Of a stretch of DNA of 47,333 nt, positions 20,401 to 40,640 are shown one piece after another. The translations under genes and the position numbers were made by a program. Source of the DNA: an uncultured Burkholderiales bacterium (GTDB lineage Bacteria > Pseudomonadota > Gammaproteobacteria > Burkholderiales > Burkholderiaceae_C); contig CAJCDH010000032.1 of assembly GCA_903961095.1 (NCBI GenBank), positions 1 to 47,333 on the forward strand, written 5' to 3'. How positions within the stretch are numbered: the stretch's first letter is position 1; every line of letters starts with the position of its first letter. The notes beneath the pieces were generated by a model that was given only the letters and a program-made list of their open reading frames with translations, was not told the origin of the DNA and searched no databases.

Positions 20401-21468
20401 GGTCGTCAATTGCACAACGTCTTCATTAACGGCTCCCGTGAGGGGCCTTTGTGGCGCACCAATTTGGATGCCAGAGAGTTCAGTGGTTATCTAGAGTACC
20501 GTCAATCTAACAGCCAAAATGCGGGCCGTATTTATGCCCGCTTAGCCCGCCTTAACTTGCCGCCATCGGCTGATCAAACTGTGGAGTCTTTGCTTGAAGA
20601 CTCGCCAGTCAGTATTCCCGCACTGGACATCGTGGTGGATGAGTTGGAGTTGCGTGGAAAGAAGATGGGCCGCGTCGAAATCGAGGCCGTCAATGCAGAG
20701 TCCGCCTTGCCAAGACAAACGCCGGGGCGAGAGTGGCGTTTGAACAAGCTCAACATCACCACACCAGAGGCCAGCTTTAAAGCCAGCGGCAAATGGGTCA
20801 CCACGCGCGAGGGCACTCAGCAAGCCAATTCAGAAATGAATTTTCGTTTGGACATTTCTGATGCGGGAGAGTTGTTAAATCGTTTGGGCACCAAAGACGC
20901 GCTTCGTGGTGGGGCAGGCAAGTTAGAAGGCCAGGTGCAATGGCAGGGCTCGCCCATGACCCTTCATTACCCCAGCATGGGCGGCCGCTTCAATGTGAAC
21001 ATGGGCCGGGGCCAGTTTTTGCAAGCTGACCCAGGCGTTGCCAAGTTATTGGGCGTCTTAAGTTTGCAGGCTTTGCCGCGTCGGCTTCTACTTGATTTCA
21101 GAGACGTCTTTAGCGCTGGCTTTTCTTTTGACACCATTCGAGGCGATGTCTTGATTCAGCAAGGCATTGCCAGTACACGCAACCTTCAAATGAAGGGGGT
21201 CAATGCGGTGGTGCAGATGGATGGTAGCTCTGACATTGCACGAGAAACACAAAACTTGCGCGTCTTAATTTTGCCTGAAGTAGATGCAGGCACCGCATCT
21301 TTGTTGGCCGGCATTGCCCTTAACCCGGCCATCGGTTTGAGTACCTTTTTGGCACAGTTAATTCTCAAACAGCCGCTAAGTCGAGTCAACACCCAAGAGT
21401 TTTTGATTGATGGCACGTGGACCGATCCGAGGGTGACCAAGGTGACAAACAGCGCTGTGGCCCCGTAG
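17410..21468 (+). CDS. yhdP: YhdP family protein (AsmA-like, inter-membrane lipid transport)
   Basis: A 1352-residue envelope protein of the YhdP/AsmA-like family. In E. coli YhdP and its paralogues TamB and YdbH form bridges that carry phospholipids from the inner to the outer membrane. One N-terminal transmembrane helix spans about residues 13-38, followed by the DUF3971-like region (VPRIEDFRPKLENMATQAIGVPVQMG) and long beta-rich repeats; the end contains the AsmA-like C-terminal domain with GKLEGQVQWQGSP and LGVLSLQALPRRLLLDFRDVF. I took the ATG at 17410 as the start: it places the membrane helix near the N-terminus and avoids the overlap with glnE that the open frame from 17332 would need. 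It is slightly longer than E. coli YhdP. Confidence 0.93.
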   Translation: MLKFSAITQITSFAVRFAAWLLLVGGFVLGMAWSALHFWIVPRIEDFRPKLENMATQAIGVPVQMGKLMAVSSGWMPTFEIHDLTLLDPEGRRALTLPKVVFAISVRSVLSLGVEQLVIDSPTLDIRRTISGEWRVAGLALKKENSPDSAAADWVFSQKEILVQNGSVIWTDEFNPLQKEKAALNLNQVSWVLRNTARHHLWRLEATPPEGFGAPFTLMGDLRRGLLSTHAGRVKDWHGQVHAEFSDVNLAQLGPHLPWKVNTSQGQGALRMWLDLRHGNIQQATADLVLENARAQLSPELEALSFKYIAGRVSAKAKPNGFDFSTAGLRFDTADGLHWPGGNVSLSYLETDTAESAQGRFQGDALDLLALRNIALQLPLPPSARQTLEAHKVSGLVNTLSLEWTENNTGPEKTFEVKAANGRFDNFYFEAGKSGSASEYWPGIENANISFDMTADGGQVKTSIEKGALQINRLFEDSRIPLDKMQASVKWQYEKNKLLVPDWQLSLKNADISADLKGSWKPSQLADSRGLLDLQGNIQQVDATRVHRYLPLSLPQNVRHYVRDAILKGSVQGVAVKVKGDLKLLPFANPKDGEFRFAGKVKDVLYAYVPATNLNLAERNNNPESIWPPMSEVTGDVVFDRLNFKVNGASGKWGNTPFTQIKAEIPSLNGPVVVNVQGESKANANVVLNDLRLSPVNNMLSGAISQASSTGTLTSRLRLSLPLASLDKTNVQGSVLLNGNDVRIQSSLPTIEKAQGTIQFSEAGFSLLGVNAQFLGGPIKLEGGSQRQAPRSTEANPLFRIQGQVTASGLRQAKEFSSLSLLAQHATGSSNYTASLGFKGGQTELSIQSQLQGLALNLPAPLGKRTEETSAFKYESLVQSVSNVAPYKAQRDQIQMSWGRGLSASYLRDLTGTEPRVIQGRIQVDEAIAAPSLNSSDLGVTAVISLPSISIDEWLSVISPAKSSPALTSIQNAPITPATQTYLPTRMTLKANEVTVQGRQLHNVFINGSREGPLWRTNLDAREFSGYLEYRQSNSQNAGRIYARLARLNLPPSADQTVESLLEDSPVSIPALDIVVDELELRGKKMGRVEIEAVNAESALPRQTPGREWRLNKLNITTPEASFKASGKWVTTREGTQQANSEMNFRLDISDAGELLNRLGTKDALRGGAGKLEGQVQWQGSPMTLHYPSMGGRFNVNMGRGQFLQADPGVAKLLGVLSLQALPRRLLLDFRDVFSAGFSFDTIRGDVLIQQGIASTRNLQMKGVNAVVQMDGSSDIARETQNLRVLILPEVDAGTASLLAGIALNPAIGLSTFLAQLILKQPLSRVNTQEFLIDGTWTDPRVTKVTNSAVAP

Positions 21469-25609: not shown

Positions 25610-28600
25610 ATGAACGCTCCTTTGCCTGATCACTTGCGCCAAGCGCTAGCCACTGTCACCCTTGATGACAAATACAGCTTGAAATCGGGTCGGGCTTTTA
25701 TGAGTGGTGTTCAAGCCTTGGTGCGCTTGCCCATGCTGATACAAGAGCGCGATGCTTTGGCAGGAAAGAATACGGGCGCATTGATCAGCGGCTATCGCGG
25801 GTCGCCCTTGGGTGGTTATGACCAAGCGCTTTGGAAAGCCAAGACTTACTTAGAAAAACACAACATTGTTTTTCAGCCGGGGGTCAACGAAGAGTTGGCA
25901 GCCACCGCTCTTTGGGGCACCCAACAAATGGGCTTTGCACCACCAGGAACTCAAAAGTTTGATGGCGTGTTTGGTATTTGGTACGGCAAAGGGCCAGGTG
26001 TCGATCGTTGCTCAGATGTGTTCAAACACGCCAACATGGCGGGCACGACCCCTTGGGGCGGTGTGCTAGCTGTTGCAGGCGATGACCATGTTGCCAAAAG
26101 CTCTACTGCTGCCCACCAAAGTGACCACATTTTTAAAGCTTGTGGCCTGCCGGTTTTCTTTCCTTCTTCAGTCCAAGAGGTTTTAGATTTGGGTGTGCAT
26201 GCCATCGCCATGAGCCGGTATGCGGGTGTTTGGTCTGGCATGAAAACCATTCAAGAGGTTGTTGAATCAAGCGCCACCGCCGATATCAACGCCGATCGTG
26301 TGAAGATCGTTTTGCCTGAGTTTGAAATGCCTCCAGGGGGTGTGCACATTCGCTGGCCAGATGCTGCACTTGATCAAGAAGCACGTTTGTTTGATTACAA
26401 ATGGTATGCAGCGCTTGCTTACATTCGTGCCAATCGATTGAATCACAACGTCATCGAAGGCCCCAACGATCGCTACGGCATCATGGCCAGCGGCAAAGCC
26501 TATAACGACACACGTCAAGCTTTGCTAGATCTGGGTTTAGACGTTGAAACCTGCCAGCGCCTTGGCATTCGTGTTCACAAGGTTGCTGTCGTTTGGCCCT
26601 TAGAGGCGCAAAGCACGCGCGAGTTTGCAAAGGGTTTGAAAGAGATTTTGGTTGTGGAGGAAAAACGCCAAATCATTGAATACCAACTGAAAGAAGAGTT
26701 GTACAACTGGCCAGACTCACAGCGGCCACGAATTGTAGGCAAGTTCGATGAGCTCGAAGGCAACGACTCAGGCGGCGAATGGTCTGTGCCCAACCCAATG
26801 GCTTACCGATTGTTAAGAGCCAATGCAGATCTCACGCCCACACTCATTGCCAAGGCTTTGGCCAAGCGTTTGCAAAAATTAGACTTGCCAGCTGATGTCT
26901 TGGCACGCATGAATGCTCAATTGAGCATCATTGATGCCAAGGAGCGCGCGCAAAATAGTTTGGTCTTCAACCCCTCTGCAGATCGCATGCCATGGTTCTG
27001 TTCTGGCTGCCCTCACAACACCAGCACCAAGGTTCCAGAGGGCTCACGTGCCATGGCCGGTATTGGTTGTCACTTCATGAGTGTCTGGATGGACCGCAGC
27101 ACGGTGGGCTTTACGCAAATGGGTGGTGAAGGCACACCATGGATTGGGCAACAGCATTTCAGCCACGAAAAACATGTGTTTGCCAACATTGGCGATGGCA
27201 CCTATTTTCACAGCGGTATCTTGGCCATCAGGCAGAGCATTGCGGCTGGCGTCAACATCACCTACAAAATTTTGTACAACGATGCTGTCGCCATGACCGG
27301 TGGGCAACGCGTGGGTGAGCGAGCTGAAGGTCATTCAGTGGTTCAAATTGCTCAAAGCATGCGCGCTGAAGGTGCTGTGGTCATCAAAGTCGTGACAGAT
27401 GAGCCTGAAAAGTACAACGGTGTTGCGCTTGCCGATGGTGTTTTGGTTCATCACCGTGATGAACTTGATGCAATTCAGCGCGAATTGCGTGAGGTCAAGG
27501 GTTGTACCGTTATCATTTACGATCAAACTTGCGCCACTGAAAAGCGCCGTCGTCGCAAGCGTGGCACCATGGTCGATCCCGCTGTGCGTGTCATGATCAA
27601 TGAATTGGTTTGCGAAGGATGTGGTGATTGCGGCGTACAGTCTAATTGCTTGTCTGTTGAACCACTTGAAACAGAGTTTGGTCGCAAACGCACGATCAAT
27701 CAAAATACTTGCAACAAAGACACCAGCTGTCTGAAAGGCTTTTGCCCAAGTTTTGTTTCAATTGAAGGTGGTCAACTTAAAAAGAAATCGAAGCTTCAAA
27801 AATTTAGCTTGGATGCTTTGCCTTCATTGCCATTGCCTTTGATTCCAAATTTATCTAATGCAAGCCAGGCTTATGGCATTGTTGTTGCAGGTGTTGGCGG
27901 CACCGGTGTCATTACCATTGGTCAGCTTTTGGGCATGGCAGCACATCTAGATGGTCTTGGCATTGTGACCCAAGATTCAGCTGGCTTGGCTCAAAAAGGG
28001 GGCGCCACTTGGAGCCATGTGTTGTTGGCAAAAGATCAAACTCAAATTCAAACGACACGTGTCAGCATGGCAGCTGCCGATTTGATTTTGGGATGCGATC
28101 CCATTGTGAGTGCAGGCAAAGAAACTTTGTCTCGCATGATTGCAGGCAGAACGCGCGTCGCACTGAACTCACACAGCACACCAACCGCTGCGTTTGTTAA
28201 AAATACCCTATGGCAAAACCCTGCTGACAGTTGCGCAGCAGACATTGCAGAAGCTGTGGGCGTCAGTGGGCTGGCAGCCTTTGATGCCGATCATCTTTCT
28301 GCTCAGTTGATGGGCGATACGATTTACATCAACCCAATGATCTTGGGCTATGCATGGCAAAAGGGTTGGGTTCCTTTGAGCCTTGATGCTTTAAAAAGAG
28401 CCATTGAACTCAATGAAGTTGCTGTTGCACAAAACTTAGCTGCTTTTGAGTGGGGTCGTCATGCGGCACATCAATTGGCTTCCGTTCAGGCACTCATCAC
28501 GCCTGTTCAAGTGATTTCTTTGAAAAAGCGTGAAAAGTTAGAAGAACTTGTCACAACACGCGTCGAGTTTTTGACCGCTTATCAAAATGCAAGTTATGCC

Positions 28601-29164
28601 AAACAGTACGAAAACTTTGTATTCAAGGTCAGAGCCAAAGAAAGCACGCTGGGCCTCAGCTTGCTTTCAGAAACTGTAGCGCGCCAGTTGTTCAAACTGA
28701 TGGCTTACAAAGATGAGTATGAAGTGGCTCGCTTGCACACCGATAAACAGTTCCTAGAACGCGTTAAATCGCAGTTTGAGGGTGATTTCAAGGTTTTCTA
28801 CCACTTAGCCCCACCCCTCCTTGCAAAACGCACTGAGAAGGGCCAGCTCCTCAAACAAAAAATGAGCCCTCACATGCTTTTGGCGTTTAAGTTGCTAGCA
28901 CCTTTGAAATTTTTACGCGGTACATCTCTTGATATCTTTGGTCGTACAGAAGAGCGTCAAACAGAGCGTGCCTTGATTCAAGAATACAAAGATGCCATTG
29001 ATGAGTTGTTGATTTCCTTGAATTTAGAAAATCACAGCCTCGCTGTCAAAATGGCCAATGTCACTGAGCAAATTAAAGGCTTTGGTCATGTGAAAGAAAA
29101 ACACTTGGCTGCAGTCATGGTTCAGTGGCAAAACTGCATGAGCGAGTTCAGAAAAACAATTTAA
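25610..29164 (+). CDS. Fused indolepyruvate:ferredoxin oxidoreductase (IorA-IorB type)
   Basis: A 1184-residue fusion enzyme that oxidatively decarboxylates aryl (indole- or phenyl-) pyruvates to acyl-CoA with thiamine diphosphate, passing electrons to a ferredoxin-like acceptor. In order: an N-terminal pyrimidine-binding domain starting LDDKYSLKSGRAFMSG; a thiamine-diphosphate domain with CSGCPHN near 464 and GDGTYFHSG near 527; a ferredoxin domain near 667-705 with the Cys-rich CEGCGDCGVQSNC and CNKDTSCLKGFCP; the gamma domain with GVGGTGVITIGQ near 761; and a C-terminal DUF6537 region. In Burkholderiales it serves aromatic amino acid breakdown. It stands alone, 48 bp after mltA, and ends at the origin-like intergenic region. 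Confidence 0.94.
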   Translation: MNAPLPDHLRQALATVTLDDKYSLKSGRAFMSGVQALVRLPMLIQERDALAGKNTGALISGYRGSPLGGYDQALWKAKTYLEKHNIVFQPGVNEELAATALWGTQQMGFAPPGTQKFDGVFGIWYGKGPGVDRCSDVFKHANMAGTTPWGGVLAVAGDDHVAKSSTAAHQSDHIFKACGLPVFFPSSVQEVLDLGVHAIAMSRYAGVWSGMKTIQEVVESSATADINADRVKIVLPEFEMPPGGVHIRWPDAALDQEARLFDYKWYAALAYIRANRLNHNVIEGPNDRYGIMASGKAYNDTRQALLDLGLDVETCQRLGIRVHKVAVVWPLEAQSTREFAKGLKEILVVEEKRQIIEYQLKEELYNWPDSQRPRIVGKFDELEGNDSGGEWSVPNPMAYRLLRANADLTPTLIAKALAKRLQKLDLPADVLARMNAQLSIIDAKERAQNSLVFNPSADRMPWFCSGCPHNTSTKVPEGSRAMAGIGCHFMSVWMDRSTVGFTQMGGEGTPWIGQQHFSHEKHVFANIGDGTYFHSGILAIRQSIAAGVNITYKILYNDAVAMTGGQRVGERAEGHSVVQIAQSMRAEGAVVIKVVTDEPEKYNGVALADGVLVHHRDELDAIQRELREVKGCTVIIYDQTCATEKRRRRKRGTMVDPAVRVMINELVCEGCGDCGVQSNCLSVEPLETEFGRKRTINQNTCNKDTSCLKGFCPSFVSIEGGQLKKKSKLQKFSLDALPSLPLPLIPNLSNASQAYGIVVAGVGGTGVITIGQLLGMAAHLDGLGIVTQDSAGLAQKGGATWSHVLLAKDQTQIQTTRVSMAAADLILGCDPIVSAGKETLSRMIAGRTRVALNSHSTPTAAFVKNTLWQNPADSCAADIAEAVGVSGLAAFDADHLSAQLMGDTIYINPMILGYAWQKGWVPLSLDALKRAIELNEVAVAQNLAAFEWGRHAAHQLASVQALITPVQVISLKKREKLEELVTTRVEFLTAYQNASYAKQYENFVFKVRAKESTLGLSLLSETVARQLFKLMAYKDEYEVARLHTDKQFLERVKSQFEGDFKVFYHLAPPLLAKRTEKGQLLKQKMSPHMLLAFKLLAPLKFLRGTSLDIFGRTEERQTERALIQEYKDAIDELLISLNLENHSLAVKMANVTEQIKGFGHVKEKHLAAVMVQWQNCMSEFRKTI

Positions 29165-29214
29165 TTTGAATTCTGACTTTGTCTTTGTATTCTTCTTTTA
29201 TATAGATTAATACA

Positions 29215-29226
29215 TAGTAGTAGTAG
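29215..29226 (+). other. DnaA-trio-like TAG repeat
   Basis: Four consecutive TAG triplets between the AT-rich stretch and the G-rich spacer next to the first DnaA box. Read from the box outward the strand is 3'-GAT-5' repeated, the published polarity of the DnaA-trio that guides DnaA onto single-stranded DNA. Confidence 0.5.
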
Positions 29227-29244
29227 ATAAGGGGAGGCTTGTTC

Positions 29245-29253
29245 TGTGGACAA
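29245..29253 (-). other. DnaA box, one mismatch
   Basis: TGTGGACAA on the plus strand reads TTGTCCACA on the minus strand, one base from the consensus TTATCCACA. It lies 18 bases from the TAG repeat. Confidence 0.5.
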
Positions 29254-29362
29254 GTCTCTTTTTTCTTTATAGATCAATGTATTGAATCATTTTGAAGCAT
29301 GTGCACGAGTGTGCTTTTGTGCTGTCTTCAAACCATGAACAACTTTCAAAAATCAATTTTTC

Positions 29363-29371
29363 TGTGGATAA
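29363..29371 (-). other. DnaA box, perfect
   Basis: TGTGGATAA, the exact reverse complement of the consensus TTATCCACA. Confidence 0.7.
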
Positions 29372-29379
29372 CTAAGGTG

Positions 29380-29388
29380 TTATCCAAA
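29380..29388 (+). other. DnaA box, one mismatch
   Basis: TTATCCAAA, one base from consensus, between two perfect boxes. Confidence 0.5.
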
Positions 29389-29390
29389 AA

Positions 29391-29399
29391 TTATCCACA
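29391..29399 (+). other. DnaA box, perfect
   Basis: TTATCCACA, an exact consensus match, two bases after the preceding imperfect box. Confidence 0.7.
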
Positions 29400-29448
29400 T
29401 CTTTGTACATTGACAAATGACCCCATCTGGTCTTGAGTCATTTTCAAA

Positions 29449-30018
29449 TTATGGGCGCATTTTTGGATGGTGATCCATTGGCTTGTGTGCAAACAAATTT
29501 TGGGTATGTGTATCAAATACTTTTTGTTGGCTTGGCGTTAAGCTGCCATAGAAAGTTTTGCTTGCAAGCATTCGGTTTGTCATTTCTATATCCCTCTCTG
29601 TCTTCAGAGCCATCATTTTGTCAATCCGTTCGGGTGTGGTCATTTTTTCCAATTCCGAGGTGTTGATGGGTGTAGGGCGTTTCATGGGTGTTTTCATTGC
29701 ACCCGAAAAAGCTTGCCAAGCTGCTTCTTGATTGGCTTGAAGTTGCAAATAGACTTTCATTTCATTCAGATATTTTTGATGCCGCTCGGCTCGCTTAGCT
29801 TCTCGACGTTCTTGCATTTTTGGATTGTTCATCATGCCTGGCATGCGATCCTGTCCCATCATGTGTGGGTGCATTCCCATGCCCATGGGAGATGGCGTAC
29901 TTTGCATGCCTTGCTGGCTTGGCGAACTTGGTGAGGGTGCTTGAGCAAAGCTATGGGTGCTAAGAAAAGAACCTAACAGGAGTGCGGATGAGACAGCAAA
30001 TTGAGAAAATGAAGTCAT
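29449..30018 (-). CDS. Spy/CpxP-like periplasmic LTXXQ protein with Met/His-rich segment
   Basis: A 189-residue exported protein. The signal peptide ends near SFAQ (residue 26). A Met/His/Pro-rich stretch at about 38-67 (PMGMGMHPHMMGQDRMPGMM) could bind copper or another soft metal. The helical C-terminal part has the repeated LQANQEAAWQAF and LTPSQQKVFD segments of the LTXXQ family, which includes the periplasmic chaperone Spy and the stress regulator CpxP. The ATG at 30018 has AAGGA seven bases upstream. The gene stands alone. A role as a metal-responsive periplasmic chaperone is inferred. Confidence 0.8.
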   Translation of the reverse strand: MTSFSQFAVSSALLLGSFLSTHSFAQAPSPSSPSQQGMQSTPSPMGMGMHPHMMGQDRMPGMMNNPKMQERREAKRAERHQKYLNEMKVYLQLQANQEAAWQAFSGAMKTPMKRPTPINTSELEKMTTPERIDKMMALKTERDIEMTNRMLASKTFYGSLTPSQQKVFDTHTQNLFAHKPMDHHPKMRP

Positions 30019-34795: not shown

Positions 34796-34950
34796 GGCGG
34801 CTCCTTGTGATCTTGGCGAAGCTTAGCTTGTGAAGGGTTCTGACATCAGTCGCGCATGGAACACCTGATGCAGATAAAATCGAGCCCTTTGGCCATGGGC
34901 CTCTCGCGGCGCGAGCAGCGCCGGCCTTCAGGTAACAGACTGGTGATTTG

Positions 34951-36996
34951 ATGCTTTACCCACAAGAATTTGATGTGATCGTTGTCGGTGGCGGCCATGC
35001 TGGCACCGAAGCCGCGCTGGCGTCTGCTCGCATGGGTTGTCAAACGCTTTTGCTGTCTCACAACATCGAAACCCTGGGCCAGATGAGCTGCAACCCGTCT
35101 ATTGGCGGCATTGGCAAGGGCCATCTGGTGAAAGAGATCGACGCGATGGGCGGCGCGATGGGCATCGCGACAGATGAAGGCGGCATACAGTTTCGAATTT
35201 TGAACAGCTCCAAAGGCCCCGCCGTTCGTGCAACACGGGCTCAGGCCGACCGTATTTTGTACAAAGCGGCCATTCGAAGTCGCCTTGAAAACCAAGAAAA
35301 CCTGTGGCTGTTTCAACAGGCTGTTGATGACCTCATGGTGGAGTCTAGTGGAGGAGAAGACCGTGTGGTGGGCGCCATAACGCAAGTGGGTGTTCGCTTC
35401 CGCGCCAAAACGGTGGTCCTAACCGCCGGCACCTTCCTCGATGGCAAAATTCATGTGGGGCTAGAAAACTATGCCGCTGGAAGGGCGGGAGATCCACCGG
35501 CGCTCAGTTTGTCAGCCCGCTTGAAAGAGCTTAAATTGCCGCAAGGACGATTGAAAACAGGGACGCCGCCGCGCCTAGACGGCCGAAGCATTGACTTTTC
35601 AAAATGCCAAGAGCAGCCCGGTGACGGAATGCCAGGCGGCTTGAATCCAGAAGCGGGCGTGCCGGTTTTTAGTTTCATGGGCCGTGCTGATATGCACCCA
35701 GCCCAAATGCCTTGCTGGGTCACCCACACCAATGAGAGAACGCACGACATCATCCGATCTGGATTCGACCGAAGTCCGATGTTCACTGGGAAAATTGAAG
35801 GTGTTGGGCCAAGGTATTGCCCCAGCGTGGAAGACAAGGTCAATCGCTTTGCCGACAAAGACAGCCATCAAATTTTCTTGGAGCCCGAAGGCCTGACAAC
35901 CCACGAGTTTTACCCCAATGGTATTTCTACCAGTCTGCCATTTGACATTCAGTACGCTTTGGTAAGGTCAATGAAGGGGCTGGAAAACGCGCACATACTG
36001 CGACCCGGCTATGCCATTGAATATGATTACTTTGACCCACGATCCTTGAAAAGCAACTTTGAAACCCGTCAAATTGGGGGCTTGTTTTTTGCGGGTCAAA
36101 TTAACGGCACCACGGGTTATGAAGAGGCCGCAGCGCAGGGCTTGTTTGCTGGCATCAATGCAGCACTCCAGTGCCGCAGCATGTCTGGACTGGCCAACGA
36201 CTTAGGCGGCGCTTGGCTGCCCAGTCGCGATCAGGCCTATTTGGGCGTGCTTGTAGACGACCTCATTACCAAAGGCGTTACCGAGCCATATCGCATGTTT
36301 ACCAGCAGGGCAGAGTTTCGCTTACAACTTAGAGAAGACAACGCCGACATGCGCCTGACCGAGATGGGCCGCCAGTTGGGATTGGTCGACGATGAGAGGT
36401 GGGTGTCTTTTTGTACAAAACGCGAAGCTGTTTCACGTGAAACAGAGCGACTGAAATCAACCTGGGTCAACCCGCGAAACTTGCCTGCTGCAGAGTCGCA
36501 GCGAGTTCTTGGGAAAGCCATTGAGCACGAGCACAACTTGTTTGATTTGTTGCGTCGCCCTGGTGTTGGCTACGCAAGCCTGATGTCTTTAGATTCCGAC
36601 CGATTTGTGGCCGACGCTGTTTCACGTGAAACACTTGGCGATATTTCGTGTGCTGTGATTGAGCAGGTTGAGATCGCGGCCAAGTATTCGGGCTACATTG
36701 ACCGGCAAAAGGTCGAAGTAGAGCGTGCTGCGCATTTTGAAAACCTCAGGCTGCCAGCAAAGCTTGACTATCTTCTGGTGTCCTCCTTGTCGATAGAGGC
36801 GAGGCAAAAACTGTCAAAGCATCGGCCAGAAACCTTGGGCATGGCCTCGCGAATCTCGGGCATTACCCCTGCCACCATCTCCTTGCTTTTGATTTACCTT
36901 AAGCGGGGTGGTTTTAAGGAGTTCATGACGCTCAAGCCGGAGCAGCTTGATGTTGAGGAGGCCGTGTTAGAGGGTGCGGCACACGTGAAGTCATGA
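34951..36996 (+). CDS. mnmG: tRNA uridine-5-carboxymethylaminomethyl modification enzyme MnmG (GidA)
   Basis: MnmG works with MnmE (GTPase) to install the cmnm5 group on U34 of certain tRNAs, using FAD, NADH, glycine and methylene-THF. The 681-residue product has the FAD motif [19 protein letters not shown] at the N-terminus, [21 protein letters not shown] and the C-terminal [19 protein letters not shown] region. I preferred the ATG at 34951 over the TTG one codon earlier. The next gene, rsmG, overlaps its stop as ATGA. Two perfect parS sites lie inside the coding sequence, each encoding Ala-Val-Ser-Arg-Glu-Thr. The 155 bp upstream is GC-rich and has no DnaA boxes. Confidence 0.98.
36429..36444. 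other. parS: parS site 1, perfect, in mnmG
   Basis: TGTTTCACGTGAAACA, the full 16-bp palindrome to which ParB binds. It lies in the mnmG reading frame, about 3.3 kb from parB. Confidence 0.93.
36618..36633. other. parS: parS site 2, perfect, in mnmG
   Basis: TGTTTCACGTGAAACA again, 173 bp after the first site and in the same reading phase, so both encode Val-Ser-Arg-Glu-Thr. Confidence 0.93.
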
Positions 36997-37697
36997 CTGA
37001 TCAGCCGACAGAGGCAAATGTTCTTCAAGATCTTGCTCGTGGCGTTGATGCCTTGGGCCTCTTGTTGACGCAACAGCAGCAGCAGCAGTTGTTGGCCTAC
37101 ATGGCCCTGATTCAAAAATGGAACAAGGTTTACAACCTGACCGCACTGAGAAAACCGCAGGAAATTCTGACCCATCATGTGTTGGACAGCTTGTCTGCCA
37201 TCACGCCCTTGCTGCGACATCTTGGCCAAGCATCCGACGCATTGGCGTCTGAACCGAAATTGTTGGATGTTGGCTCAGGCGGTGGCTTGCCGGGCGTTGT
37301 CATTGCAATTTGTTGCCCTGCTATTCAAGTGACATGTGTCGACACCGTTTCAAAAAAGGCGGCATTCGTACAGCAAGTGGCCGCCAGTTTAAGGCTATCT
37401 AACTTGCAAGGCGTTCATGCGCGCGTTGAAAGCTTGACGGGCCCGTTTGATGTGATTTGTTCTCGGGCGTTTGCGTCATTGCCTGACTTTGTTCGTTGGT
37501 CGTCAGCTGCGTTGGCTCGTCACGGCATTTGGATGGCCATGAAAGGCAAGCTTCCCGAGGAGGAAATGGCGACTTTGCCTTCTTTTGCAGAAGTGTTTCA
37601 CGTGGAACAACTCAAAGTTCCTGGTCTGAATGCAGATCGCTGCATGATATGGATGAGAAATTCACAAACTTTGTCTGCCGCGGTTCGCGTGACTTGA
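36993..37697 (+). CDS. rsmG: 16S rRNA m7G527 methyltransferase RsmG (GidB)
   Basis: RsmG methylates N7 of G527 in 16S rRNA with SAM; its loss gives low-level streptomycin resistance in many bacteria. The 234-residue product has [22 protein letters not shown], the SAM-binding [17 protein letters not shown], and [15 protein letters not shown]. The ATG overlaps the mnmG stop (ATGA), so the two are translationally coupled. A short CAA(CAG)5 run at 37071-37088 encodes six Gln near residue 30. A parS site lies near its 3' end and encodes the segment VFHVEQ. Confidence 0.97.
37594..37609. other. parS: parS site 3, in rsmG
   Basis: TGTTTCACGTGGAACA differs by one base from the perfect palindrome. 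Its reverse complement, TGTTCCACGTGAAACA, fits the degenerate consensus TGTTNCACGTGAAACA known from Bacillus, so it is probably functional. Confidence 0.8.
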
Positions 37698-37737: not shown

Positions 37738-38352
37738 ATGTTTGGAATTTCTGATTACGGTGCTTTTGTGGCGGCTTTTGTGTTGCTTTTGTTCCTGCCT
37801 GGTCCTGGAAATCTGGCCCTTATCACCTCTACCTCTCAAGGGGGTATGAAGGGCGGCTTTGCGTCGGTCATGGGCTTGATCTTGGGTGATCAAATCTTGT
37901 TGTGGATGACAGTAGCGGGCGTGGCAGCACTTTTGCAAACCTATCCTCATTTGTTCATGGCATTGCAGTGGGCGGGTGCAGCATACCTTGCGTGGCTTGG
38001 CGCCAAAATGGTTTTTGCCAAACCAGGTGAAGGGCCATCGATCAAAATTACACCAGGCAAGTACTTCAAAGAAACCATGTTCATTACCTTGCTGAACCCA
38101 AAGGCCATCATGTTCTATTTTGCGTTTTTTCCGCAATTCATAGACCCAGAGCTTCACCAAGGAATGATTACTTTTTCATTCATGGCTGCCACCATTGCCA
38201 TTTTGGGATTTTTGTACTGTTTTGGTGTGGTGCTAATCACTCACAATATGGCTGAACGCATCAGAGCCAACCCCAAAGTTTCTGGGCTCCTGCAAAAAGT
38301 TGCCGGCTTGTTCTTGATTGGTTTCGGCATTAAATTGGCCCTAGGCAAATGA
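37738..38352 (+). CDS. LysE family translocator
   Basis: A 204-residue membrane protein of the LysE/RhtB family, which exports amino acids or related small molecules by proton-motive force. The N-terminal FLPGPGNLALITSTSQGGMKGGFAS is the family signature, and five to six hydrophobic segments follow; TLLNPKAIMFYFAFFPQF is the second conserved region. Substrate is unknown. I used the ATG at 37738, with GAAGG nearby upstream, instead of the TTG one codon earlier. It sits inside the mnmG-parB block and its stop overlaps an in-frame ATG of parA (ATGA at 38349). Confidence 0.92.
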   Translation: MFGISDYGAFVAAFVLLLFLPGPGNLALITSTSQGGMKGGFASVMGLILGDQILLWMTVAGVAALLQTYPHLFMALQWAGAAYLAWLGAKMVFAKPGEGPSIKITPGKYFKETMFITLLNPKAIMFYFAFFPQFIDPELHQGMITFSFMAATIAILGFLYCFGVVLITHNMAERIRANPKVSGLLQKVAGLFLIGFGIKLALGK

Positions 38353-38381
38353 ACGCATTCGCTGAAAAAAGAAGTTTAAAA

Positions 38382-39152
38382 ATGGCAAAAATTTTCTGTG
38401 TTGCAAACCAAAAAGGTGGCGTTGGTAAAACCACATCAGCCGTAAACTTGGCCGCCGGATTGGCCAAGGTGGGCCAGCGCGTTTTATTGGTTGACCTTGA
38501 TCCGCAGGGCAATGCCACCATGGGCTCGGGTGTTGACAAGCGGCAGTTAGAACTCAGTGTCTATGACGTTTTGTTAGAGTCAGCCAGCATTCAAGAGGCC
38601 GCTATTTTTTCAGAAAAATGTGGCTATCACGTGTTGGGTGCCAACCGTGAATTGGCCGGAGCCGAAGTTGAACTGGTTGATCTTGAAAGGCGTGATCAGC
38701 GCCTGAAGGCTGCGTTGGAAGTGGCTGACAAGAACTTTGACTTTGTCTTAATTGACTGCCCGCCCTCTTTGTCCATGCTCACCTTGAATGGTTTGTGTGC
38801 AGCCCATGGCGTCATTGTGCCAATGCAGTGCGAATATTTCGCCCTTGAAGGTTTGACAGATTTGGTCAATACCATCAAGCAAGTTCATGCCAACTTGAAC
38901 CCCGATTTGAAGATCATCGGCCTGCTGCGAGTGATGTTCGATCCGCGAATTACCTTGCAACAGCAAGTGAGCGAGCAGCTGAAATCGCACTTTGGCGACA
39001 AAGTGTTTAACACCGTGATTCCCCGAAATGTGCGCTTGGCAGAAGCCCCTAGCTACGGTTTACCTGGCGTTGTGTTTGACCCTTCGGCCAAAGGCAGTCA
39101 AGCTTTTGTCGAGTTTGCCAAGGAGTTGGTACAGCGCATACCAACACTCTGA
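38382..39152 (+). CDS. parA: Chromosome-partitioning ATPase ParA (Soj)
   Basis: ParA is a DNA-binding ATPase that, with ParB and parS, moves newly copied origins apart. The 256-residue product has the deviant Walker A KGGVGKTT at residues 11-18, the switch I segment VDLDPQGNATMG, and Walker B VLIDCPPSLSMLT. The start at 38382 (MAKIFCVANQKGG) agrees with chromosomal ParA proteins and has AAGAAG upstream. A longer start at 38349, coupled to the lysE-like stop by ATGA, would add 11 residues and cannot be excluded. Confidence 0.96.
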   Translation: MAKIFCVANQKGGVGKTTSAVNLAAGLAKVGQRVLLVDLDPQGNATMGSGVDKRQLELSVYDVLLESASIQEAAIFSEKCGYHVLGANRELAGAEVELVDLERRDQRLKAALEVADKNFDFVLIDCPPSLSMLTLNGLCAAHGVIVPMQCEYFALEGLTDLVNTIKQVHANLNPDLKIIGLLRVMFDPRITLQQQVSEQLKSHFGDKVFNTVIPRNVRLAEAPSYGLPGVVFDPSAKGSQAFVEFAKELVQRIPTL

Positions 39153-39169
39153 CGACTCAAGCACTCATC

Positions 39170-39724
39170 ATGGGAAATCCAAAAGTCCTCATTTTACCTG
39201 GTTGGCAAGGAAGTGGGCCCTCACATTGGCAAATGCGCTGGGTGAGTCAATGGGCTTACCAGGTGCTTGAACAACACGACTGGATGCGCCCGCTTCGAGG
39301 CGATTGGCTAGCACGCCTTGAAGATGTCGTGTCTGAACTGGAGGAGCCTGTTTATTTGGTGGCACACAGTTTGGGCTGCATTCAAATCGCTGCTTGGGCA
39401 CAAATTTCTAAACAATGCCACAAAGTCAAAGGCGCTTTTTTGGTCGCCCCCGGCGACGTTGAGGCCTCTCACCTGCAAGATGTGTTTTCAACTTGGCGGC
39501 CGATTGCATTGACGGCACTGCCCTTCAAATCAAGCTTGATTGGCAGTCAAAACGATCCTTTTTGCAGCCCTGCACGCGCAGAATTCTTTGCAAAGGCATG
39601 GGGTTCCCAGTTCGTGAACTTGGGCGAGATGGGGCATGTGAATGCTGAATCAAATTTGGGTGATTGGCCAGAAGGCCACGCATTGTTGAATGAATTGATG
39701 AAAGATACAGAACATGGTCACTAA
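39170..39724 (+). CDS. RBBP9/YdeN-family serine hydrolase between parA and parB
   Basis: A 184-residue alpha/beta hydrolase of the RBBP9/YdeN family. The N-terminus VLILPGWQGSGPSHWQ is typical. The catalytic triad is likely Ser67 in VAHSLGC, Asp129 in GSQNDPF and His156 in GEMGHVNAES. Substrate is unknown; human RBBP9 is a serine hydrolase. It lies 17 bp after parA and its last 11 bases overlap the parB start, so it is co-transcribed with the partition genes. Whether it has any role in chromosome segregation is not known. Confidence 0.9.
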   Translation: MGNPKVLILPGWQGSGPSHWQMRWVSQWAYQVLEQHDWMRPLRGDWLARLEDVVSELEEPVYLVAHSLGCIQIAAWAQISKQCHKVKGAFLVAPGDVEASHLQDVFSTWRPIALTALPFKSSLIGSQNDPFCSPARAEFFAKAWGSQFVNLGEMGHVNAESNLGDWPEGHALLNELMKDTEHGH

Positions 39725-40640
39725 AAAACCAAAGGGCTTAGGACGAGGGTTGGAGGCTTTGTTGGGGCCGAAGGTTCAGAACGAACCCAGTTCGCCTCAA
39801 GCCGTTGAAGCGGCAGCCAATCGAACCCCCAACACCTTGGCTTTGAGCGACTTGGTGCCAGGCATGTACCAACCGCGAACCCGAATGGACGAAGGCGCAC
39901 TCTACGAGTTGGCAGAGTCTATCAAGGCGCAAGGCATCATGCAGCCCATCTTGGTTCGCAAATTAAGTGACGGCCCCAATGCGGGCAAATATGAAATCAT
40001 TGCCGGAGAACGTCGTTTTCGCGCATCCCGACTGGCCGGCTTGAACGAAGTGCCGGTCTTGGTTCGGGATGTACCCAACGAGGCGGCAGCGGCCATGGCC
40101 TTGATTGAGAACATTCAACGCGAAGACCTCAACCCACTGGAAGAGGCGCTTGGCTTACAGCGCCTAATCAAAGAGTTTGGCCTGACCCATGAAACTGCAG
40201 CGCAAGCCGTGGGCCGCTCGCGAAGTGCCGCCAGCAATTTGCTTCGCTTGTTGAATTTGGCAGAGCCCGTGCAAACCATGCTCATTGCAGGTGACATCGA
40301 CATGGGACATGCACGCGCCTTGTTGGGCTTAGACAAGGCGACGCAAATTACAGCGGCCAATCAAATTAGCGCTAAAAAAATGTCGGTGCGCGAAGCAGAG
40401 AGCTTGGTGAAAAAACTTAGCGCAGAGTTTTCTTTGGTTCAACAAAAGCCGAAAAAAGAAAAGTCACGCGATATCAAACGCGTAGAGGAAGAACTCTCCG
40501 ACTTGCTCACAGCGCAGGTGGAAGTGCGAATCAAAAAGCGAGTGAAGCGGCATGGCCGATTTGAAGAAATGGGTGAGTTGTCAATTCAGTTTGGATCCAT
40601 GGATGAGCTCAATGGTCTGATTGAAAAATTACGCGCCTAA
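39714..40640 (+). CDS. parB: Chromosome-partitioning protein ParB (Spo0J)
   Basis: ParB is a CTP-dependent DNA clamp that loads at parS, slides along DNA, and recruits ParA and SMC. The 308-residue product starts MVTKKPKGLGRGLEALLG. The ParB/Srx CTPase domain includes VPGMYQPRTRMDEGALYELAESI and the GERRFRA motif at residues 98-104. The ENIQREDLNPLEEA motif and the helix-turn-helix around ETAAQAVGRSRSAASNLLRLL follow, then a linker and a C-terminal dimerisation domain. The start codon overlaps the hydrolase gene by 11 bases. An intrinsic terminator follows at 40709. Confidence 0.97.
   Translation: MVTKKPKGLGRGLEALLGPKVQNEPSSPQAVEAAANRTPNTLALSDLVPGMYQPRTRMDEGALYELAESIKAQGIMQPILVRKLSDGPNAGKYEIIAGERRFRASRLAGLNEVPVLVRDVPNEAAAAMALIENIQREDLNPLEEALGLQRLIKEFGLTHETAAQAVGRSRSAASNLLRLLNLAEPVQTMLIAGDIDMGHARALLGLDKATQITAANQISAKKMSVREAESLVKKLSAEFSLVQQKPKKEKSRDIKRVEEELSDLLTAQVEVRIKKRVKRHGRFEEMGELSIQFGSMDELNGLIEKLRA

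What the first reader, a model, noticed from the sequence alone, without database searches (positions are those of the whole stretch)
29165..29448. Origin-like region with a DnaA-box cluster in a convergent gap
Two perfect TTATCCACA boxes and two one-mismatch boxes occur within 155 bp of AT-rich intergenic DNA. This gap sits 5.5 kb left of mnmG and 9-11 kb from parA/parB with three parS sites. In many bacteria oriC lies near this block; in Bordetella, as I recall, numbering starts at gidA. An origin between an indolepyruvate oxidoreductase gene and a Spy-like gene, without dnaA in view, would be unusual.
Basis: partly seen in the sequence, partly recalled or inferred. Interest (0 to 1): 0.85.

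Follow-up and report, generated by a model that had tools for sequence, protein, structure and literature searches.

The report
Replication origin doubling as transcription terminator
This gap is very probably where a freshwater Limnohabitans bacterium starts copying its chromosome, far from its dnaA gene, and the DNA site that should recruit the starter protein also looks built into a stop signal for the neighbouring gene.

Summary
The box cluster is real, at the stated coordinates, and far above chance. Relatives make the gap the chromosomal oriC of this Limnohabitans genome. In one-contig relative G006 the GC-skew change point has a bootstrap interval of 317.7-349.7 kb, which contains the orthologous gap (343.4 kb) and excludes dnaA (260 kb); the sampled skew maximum lies at the gap's antipode. 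Parts: AT-rich stretch, DnaA-trios, an R1-like DnaA box, an IHF-like site at the E. coli offset, three more boxes.

A dnaA-distant origin near mnmG is not unusual (E. coli; Cupriavidus metallidurans). The unusual part came from comparison. In 8 of 8 sister loci minC flanks the unwinding side. In the window's group MinE was not found (0 of 7 genomes, against 11 of 11 others) and an oxidoreductase gene reads into the origin instead. There the R1 box supplies the loop and part of the 3' arm of a 15-16-pair hairpin followed by a T-tract: 8 of 8 origins of this group, 0 of 8 sisters. Genome G066 shows a second, separate case. Binding, opening and termination are inferred; no experiment was available.

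The parts
29165..29448 (.). oriC, whole convergent gap
   Evidence: box cluster; skew switch at the orthologous gap in G006 and G001; aligned with 15 relatives
29180..29214 (.). AT-rich candidate DNA unwinding element (about 80% AT)
   Evidence: unwinding itself is inferred
29215..29226 (+). four DnaA-trios (TAG x4; 3'-GAT-5' read away from the box)
   Evidence: consensus from PMC8287927
29245..29253 (-). DnaA box 1 (TTGTCCACA), R1-like; TGT is the hairpin loop and GGACAA lies in its 3' arm
   Evidence: present in 16 of 16 genus loci aligned, but it was also the anchor used to cut them out
29229..29263 (+). terminator-like hairpin, 16 pairs and 3-nt loop, with T-rich tail; oriented to stop transcription coming from the 25610-29164 gene
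29272..29284 (+). IHF-like site GATCAATGTATTG (one mismatch), 27 bp from the start of box 1, the offset seen in E. coli oriC
   Evidence: IHF binding inferred
29336..29343 (+). conserved TGAACAAC, also upstream of the right-end box of E. coli oriC; role unknown
29363..29371 (-). DnaA box 2 (TTATCCACA), 118-119 bp from box 1 in 19 of 19 loci measured
29380..29388 (+). DnaA box 3 (TTATCCAAA)
   Evidence: less conserved
29391..29399 (+). DnaA box 4 (TTATCCACA)
25610..29164 (+). indolepyruvate-oxidoreductase-type gene reading into the origin; stop codon 50 bp from the trios
29449..30018 (-). LTXXQ/Spy-like gene, right neighbour
34948..36996 (+). mnmG (gidA)
36429..36444 (.). parS-like site 1
36618..36633 (.). 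parS-like site 2
37594..37609 (.). parS-like site 3
38349..39152 (+). parA-like ATPase gene
39714..40640 (+). parB

Best explanation
The gap is the chromosomal oriC of a Limnohabitans species. DnaA would bind box 1 and, with IHF bending the DNA just beyond it, work together with boxes 2-4. A DnaA filament would then run from box 1 onto the DnaA-trios and open the AT-rich stretch at 29180-29226. Nearby parS sites and ParAB would move the new origins apart. In the window's group the Min genes that flank the unwinding side in sister species are not found, and a gene reads straight into it. The spacer between trios and box 1 is complementary to box 1, so the transcript would end in a hairpin with a T-tract. 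Box 1 would thus be both the unwinding anchor and half of an intrinsic terminator that keeps RNA polymerase out of the IHF and box array. Shown here: position, conservation, skew in relatives, anatomy, predicted hairpin, genes not found. Inferred: DnaA and IHF binding, opening, and actual termination. The confidence covers origin plus terminator-like hairpin, not an effect of the hairpin on initiation.
For: Skew: in one-contig G006 (2,948,795 bp) the cumulative G-C minimum of a contiguous 462-kb stretch is at 335,177 and the change point at 334,720 (bootstrap 317,720-349,720). The gap is at 343,305-343,556 and dnaA at 260 kb (0 of 2000 resamples reach it). The sampled genome-wide maximum lies between 1.806 and 1.843 Mb; the gap's antipode is 1.818 Mb. 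G001: change point 263,001 (246,001-278,001), gap 267.3 kb, dnaA 184 kb. The gap is the top DnaA-box cluster in the 1,802,320 of 2,948,795 bases of G006 examined. Anatomy: trios, box 1, box 2 and box 4 less its first base are invariant at 33 of 38 positions against 31 of 202 outside, 16 loci; without box 1, the anchor, 24 of 29. Best IHF-like match at +27 from box 1 in 18 of 19 loci and +28 in one (0 mismatches in 3, one in 9, two in 7), the +27 of E. coli R1 to GATCAACAACCTG, itself two mismatches off. Terminator: -17.8 to -22.4 kcal/mol, z -5.5 to -7.0 (300 mononucleotide shuffles each) in 8 of 8 origins of the group; z -2.1 to 1.4 in 8 of 8 minC-type origins that share box 1. 0 of 177 distinct boxes without trios reach -17 kcal/mol, against 8 of 51 with trios. 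99% of pair cells hold and one pair changed on both sides, A-U to G-C. G066, another genus, has a different stem on the same box (-23.9 kcal/mol, z -5.5) with an LTXXQ gene ending 67 bp from its trios. Gene change; MinC 0 of 4 and MinE 0 of 7, MinE in 11 of 11 others.
Against: No binding, unwinding, depth or transcript data. The skew minimum is 4-8 kb off the gap in G001 and G006 (inside the intervals) and 8.6 kb off, at 20,623, within the window itself. In G013 the deepest minimum of the stretch read is 49 kb from the gap, with a second minimum beside it. The spacer between the last TAG trio and box 1 is 18 bp; the published search used at most 16 unless a second box intervenes. Weak IHF-like matches are common in such AT-rich DNA: 77 of 1000 shuffles had as many with at most one mismatch. 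The eight hairpins of the group probably go back to one event, so there are two independent cases. The shuffle control of the covariation is weak (score reached by 18 of 500, pairs changed on both sides by 437 of 500). Other origins have an ORF pointing at the unwinding side without such a hairpin, though further off or not verified as genes. The group was defined by its neighbour gene and identity; no tree was built.
Confidence: 0.85

Rival explanations
1. The true origin is the rpmH-dnaA intergenic region, as in many bacteria, and the gap is only a DnaA-binding site.
For: One perfect TTATCCACA is conserved in the dnaA region of 17 of 18 distinct regions examined; rpmH and rnpA, read by eye, lie beside it in the own genome. 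In some related families a box cluster does sit at dnaA (L085, L089, L131, genes read by eye).
Against: Skew keeps falling from dnaA down to the gap in G006 and G001, and the bootstrap excludes dnaA. No trio-box pattern at dnaA in the Limnohabitans loci.
Confidence: 0.03
2. The gap is a DnaA-titration or DnaA-inactivating site of the datA type (DnaA boxes, IHF site, read-through transcription), not an origin.
For: Boxes plus an IHF-like site plus a terminator overlapping a box resemble E. coli datA, where a DnaA box partly overlaps an operon terminator (PMC10950094, passages).
Against: DnaA-trios and an AT-rich stretch; skew switch; parS and mnmG neighbourhood; no better cluster in the 61% of G006 scanned.
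Confidence: 0.04
3. The gap is oriC, but the hairpin is an ordinary gene-end terminator that merely happens to overlap box 1, with no effect on initiation.
For: Position and polarity fit an ordinary intrinsic terminator of the 25610-29164 gene.
Against: The overlap with the box is exact in 8 of 8 members of the group and recurs with another stem in another genus. This does not show any effect on initiation.
Confidence: 0.5
4. The inverted repeat acts as DNA: a cruciform beside the unwinding element helps opening or orients DnaA.
For: Nearly perfect arms directly beside the trios; folding of the gap as single-stranded DNA z = -3.5, 0 of 200 shuffles as good.
Against: The T-tract follows only the arm that lies downstream in the direction of the incoming gene, and the hairpin is absent in the minC-type origins, where the neighbour reads away, which points to RNA.
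Confidence: 0.1

Closest known systems
Escherichia coli oriC (between mnmG and mioC)
   Same: Beside mnmG; AT-rich part, then R1-type box as TGTGGAYAA, IHF-type site 27 bp from the start of R1, TGAACAAC upstream of a right-hand box. That dnaA is elsewhere in E. coli is recalled.
   Different: TAG trios and an 18-bp spacer instead of the E. coli 13-mers (name recalled); extra + strand boxes on the right; neighbours differ; R1 inside a terminator-like hairpin, which E. coli R1 is not (z 0.3).
Cupriavidus metallidurans CH34 chromosome 1 origin region (PMC2864759, passages)
   Same: Order Burkholderiales; skew switch about 90 kb from dnaA at a 213-nt stretch with three perfect DnaA boxes, while the region upstream of dnaA has one perfect and three putative boxes.
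   Different: No trios, hairpin or neighbour change described in the passages read.
Basal unwinding system, BUS (PMC8287927, passages and section 14 part 1)
   Same: DnaA box, spacer, repeated 3'-GAT-5' trios in the same order.
   Different: Spacer 18 bp from the last TAG; activity not tested.
Escherichia coli datA with the glyV-X-Y terminator (PMC10950094, passages)
   Same: A DnaA box partly overlapping a transcription terminator near an IHF site.
   Different: datA inactivates DnaA and is not an origin.

Membership tests
chromosomal oriC | located at the GC-skew switch with terminus opposite | tested here: met
   in relatives G006 and G001; the window's own genome is in 350 contigs
chromosomal oriC | cluster of DnaA boxes beyond chance, conserved in relatives | tested here: met
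chromosomal oriC | AT-rich unwinding element beside the boxes | tested here: met
   about 80% AT at 29180-29224; opening itself not testable
chromosomal oriC | replication starts there in cells | not testable with these tools
   no depth or initiation data
BUS | three or more DnaA-trios next to a DnaA box | tested here: met
   four TAG trios, box TTGTCCACA
BUS | spacer of at most 16 bp in the published search, longer only with a second box between | tested here: inconclusive
   18 bp from the last TAG; 14 bp in sister G016 counting TAA as a trio
intrinsic transcription terminator | G+C-bearing stem-loop followed by a T-tract, downstream of a gene in its direction | tested here: met
intrinsic transcription terminator | RNA ends there | not testable with these tools
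   no transcript data
dnaA-linked origin | box cluster adjacent to dnaA | tested here: not met
   dnaA about 83 kb away in G001 and G006, 184 kb in G013; one perfect box at dnaA

The most novel reading that the evidence does not exclude
In this group R1 is a two-state switch: when DnaA is off box 1, polymerase from the incoming gene crosses the unwinding element and stops at the hairpin; when DnaA is on, it blocks polymerase and starts opening. The nascent hairpin RNA carries the box sequence and could itself bind DnaA, so that transcription of a metabolic gene feeds into initiation timing. The switch arose after the Min genes beside oriC were lost, and arose separately in another genus of the family (G066).
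Probability: 0.15. Interest if true: 0.8.

Novelty: new variant of a known kind. Interest (0 to 1): 0.5.

Why it matters
It places the origin of a common freshwater genus and shows that dnaA is a poor origin marker there. The overlap of the R1 DnaA box with a terminator-like hairpin, seen here only where a gene reads closely into the unwinding element, is a natural experiment on how origins cope with incoming transcription. The apparent absence of MinE in the same group raises the question of how these cells place their division site.

Tried and rejected
Rejected: origin at dnaA (skew, single perfect box); motif enrichment genome-wide (13 against 10 for the reversed control); known RNA family in the window (0 matches at gathering score).

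Led nowhere: a dif-like pattern recalled from E. coli gave one three-mismatch match in G006, not at the skew maximum, so the terminus rests on the skew maximum alone. Sampled skew in G292 (16 stretches of 5 kb) did not separate left from right of its trio-box site (means -0.006 and 0.004, p = 0.54). G024, another family, has two trio-box copies near mnmG, but the skew minimum of the stretch read lies at 21.7 kb, nearer dnaA, so I do not generalise the dnaA-distant origin to all Burkholderiales. The order-wide pattern search hit 23 of 300 genomes, while the reversed control pattern hit 15 of 300, so single hits there prove little. First alignment had locus L062 on the wrong strand; it was redone. 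G002, G014 and G015 of the 17 genus genomes are not in that alignment (no or only a weak DNA match). The toward/away ORF calls include spurious ORFs in G+C-rich genomes; I rely only on neighbours checked by Pfam or tblastn. In L064 (Limnohabitans sp. Hippo3) the oxidoreductase gene is near mnmG with no trios in the stretch held, unexplained. Paper searches for Limnohabitans oriC, oriC with minC in Betaproteobacteria, Burkholderia with mnmG, and Bordetella with gidA listed 7 papers in all; of these I saw passages of one (PMC2099444) and only listings of the rest, none on this locus by title or abstract start. For DnaA-trios and for a DnaA box with transcription termination I saw listings of 20 of 40 and 10 of 45 papers.

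Full report
Setting. The window is the whole contig C32 of a 3.03-Mb genome in 350 contigs. By 'the window's group' I mean G000, G001, G003, G005, G006, G009, G012 and AF21: MnmG 90-93% identical, gap 80-90% identical where matched, oxidoreductase gene beside the gap. No tree was built.

Observation. Two perfect and two one-mismatch DnaA boxes lie within 155 bp of a 33% GC convergent gap. 0 of 5000 shuffles of the gap matched either count. The genome has only 13 TTATCCACA, about the background level, and only these two share a contig.

Is it the origin? The window's own genome is too fragmented for genome-wide skew, so I used relatives with long contigs. In G006 (one contig, 2,948,795 bp) I read 80 evenly spaced 20-kb stretches plus 12 filling stretches, 1,802,320 bases in all. 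The cumulative G-C minimum of the contiguous 73.7-536.0 kb part is at 335,177; a step fit gives 334,720 with bootstrap interval 317,720-349,720. The orthologous gap is at 343.3-343.6 kb, mnmG at 349 kb, dnaA at 260 kb. Skew goes on falling from dnaA to the gap region, and the sampled maximum lies between 1.806 and 1.843 Mb, where the gap's antipode (1.818 Mb) is. In G001 the fit gives 263,001 (246,001-278,001), with gap at 267.3 kb and dnaA at 184 kb. Within the window the minimum is at 20,623, 8.6 kb left of the gap. G013 agrees less sharply: a minimum beside the gap, but a deeper one 49 kb away; the 40 kb read around its dnaA have net positive skew. In G006 the gap is the best DnaA-box cluster of all bases read. 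Around dnaA, 17 of 18 distinct regions had one perfect box and at most one further one-mismatch box in the best 300 bp; the eighteenth is a truncated contig.

Anatomy. From left to right: an AT-rich stretch (about 80% AT), TAGTAGTAGTAG, an 18-bp spacer, box 1 (TGTGGACAA on the + strand), an IHF-like GATCAATGTATTG, TGAACAAC, box 2, box 3, box 4. Across 16 genus loci, 33 of 38 positions of trios, box 1, box 2 and box 4 (less its first base) are invariant against 31 of 202 others. Box 1 was the anchor when these loci were cut out, so its invariance is partly by construction; without it the count is 24 of 29. The loci themselves were found by DNA similarity to the whole gap, or by MnmG for L062; three of the 17 genus genomes (G002, G014, G015) are not in the set. 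Box 2 lies 118-119 bp from box 1 in all 19 loci measured, and the best IHF-like match within offsets 15-44 is at +27 in 18 and +28 in one (0 mismatches in 3, one in 9, two in 7). E. coli oriC, fetched for comparison, has GATCAACAACCTG at the same +27 from R1 (that this is its IHF site is recalled) and also a TGAACAAC before its right-hand box. The trio order and orientation match the basal unwinding system (PMC8287927, passages and section 14 part 1). A strict trio-box pattern, run over 4,201,341 fetched bases (overlapping loci counted more than once), hit only gap orthologues and sites upstream of mnmG; it missed two gap orthologues, L018 and L022, with interrupted trios.

Neighbourhood. In all 8 sister loci examined, minC reads away from the unwinding side; the same holds in two further Comamonadaceae-type MAGs (L069, L076) and in a Methylobacillus MAG (L105). 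In the 8 loci of the window's group the 3' end of the oxidoreductase gene is there instead (95 loci examined, 75 with neither gene). MinC was not found in 4 of 4 genomes of the group tested (G000, G001, G006, G012) but was in G013. MinE was not found in 7 of 7 genomes of the group and was found in the 11 of 11 others. AF21 was not tested. G001 and G006 are rated 100% complete, so there missing sequence is an unlikely reason; G003, G005 and G009 are 73-81% complete.

The hairpin. A terminator scan flagged 29229-29263 (2 such sites in 600 bases against 0.4 in shuffles). The spacer's bases pair with box 1 and what follows: 16 pairs, loop TGT (the first three bases of box 1), then a T-rich tail in the direction of the incoming gene. 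It is present in 8 of 8 origins of the group (15-16 pairs, z -5.5 to -7.0 against 300 mononucleotide shuffles) and in 0 of 8 minC-type origins with the same box (z -2.1 to 1.4). 99% of pair cells hold; one pair changed on both sides, but the shuffle control is weak. Among 228 distinct boxes in everything fetched, none of 177 without trios reaches -17 kcal/mol, while 8 of 51 with trios do. Seven of those eight are from this group. The eighth is G066, a different genus of the same family: another stem sequence on the same box, T-tract after it, and an LTXXQ gene reading in and ending 67 bp before the trios. I read this as a terminator that uses the DnaA box as part of its 3' arm, arisen twice where a gene runs into the unwinding element with little room for a terminator before it. 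A DnaA box partly overlapping a terminator is described at E. coli datA, and the same paper cites work on DnaA binding an RNA box in transcription termination (PMC10950094, passages).

How usual is it? An origin near mnmG is known from E. coli and, away from dnaA within Burkholderiales, from C. metallidurans (PMC2864759, passages). [quoted passage not shown] A looser trio-box pattern hit 23 of 300 genomes of the order, own included, but its reversed control hit 15 of 300. Of the 22 other genomes, 11 have a hit on the same contig within 30 kb of mnmG; in 8 of these 11 dnaA is 50-346 kb away, in 3 within 9 kb (distances across record ends assume circular records). The origin as such is a new member of a known kind; the box-terminator overlap is a variant for which I saw no earlier oriC example in the listings named in Tried and rejected.

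Limits. No depth, transcript, binding or replication data. The hairpin's link with incoming transcription rests on two independent cases.

Noticed in passing
G000, G001, G003, G005, G006, G009, G012 (whole genomes): MinE (and MinC in the 4 tested) not found in the window's group, while the other 11 genus genomes have MinE. How division-site placement works there is unknown.
   Followed up: partly
L272 (G066) 1480-1540, - strand: Second, separate case of a terminator-like hairpin built on the trio-side DnaA box, with an LTXXQ/Spy-like gene reading into the origin.
   Followed up: partly
L249 11233 and 11624 (G024); L276, L280, L282; L094 6884 and 7244: Some other Burkholderiales have two trio-box copies a few hundred bases apart near mnmG.
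   Followed up: no
G013, G007, G011, G010, G004 against the window's group: The orientation of oriC relative to mnmG differs: mnmG is on the unwinding side in these five, on the box-2 to box-4 side in the window's group where both share a contig; inversions next to the origin are likely.
   Followed up: no
L069 about 4030; L076 about 1946: In two Comamonadaceae-type MAGs the trios are intact but box 1 has degenerated (GGTTGACAA, TTGTTGAAA).
   Followed up: no
G024, G066, G292 contig 1: Records begin at dnaA although the trio-box site lies about 50, 101 and 274 kb away; skew support was ambiguous (G024), inconclusive (G292) or not obtained (G066).
   Followed up: partly
L064 261-977: In Limnohabitans sp. 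Hippo3 the same oxidoreductase gene lies near mnmG, with no trios in the stretch held.
   Followed up: no
window 36429-36444, 36618-36633, 37594-37609: The three parS-like sites lie inside coding sequence, two in mnmG and one in rsmG.
   Followed up: no
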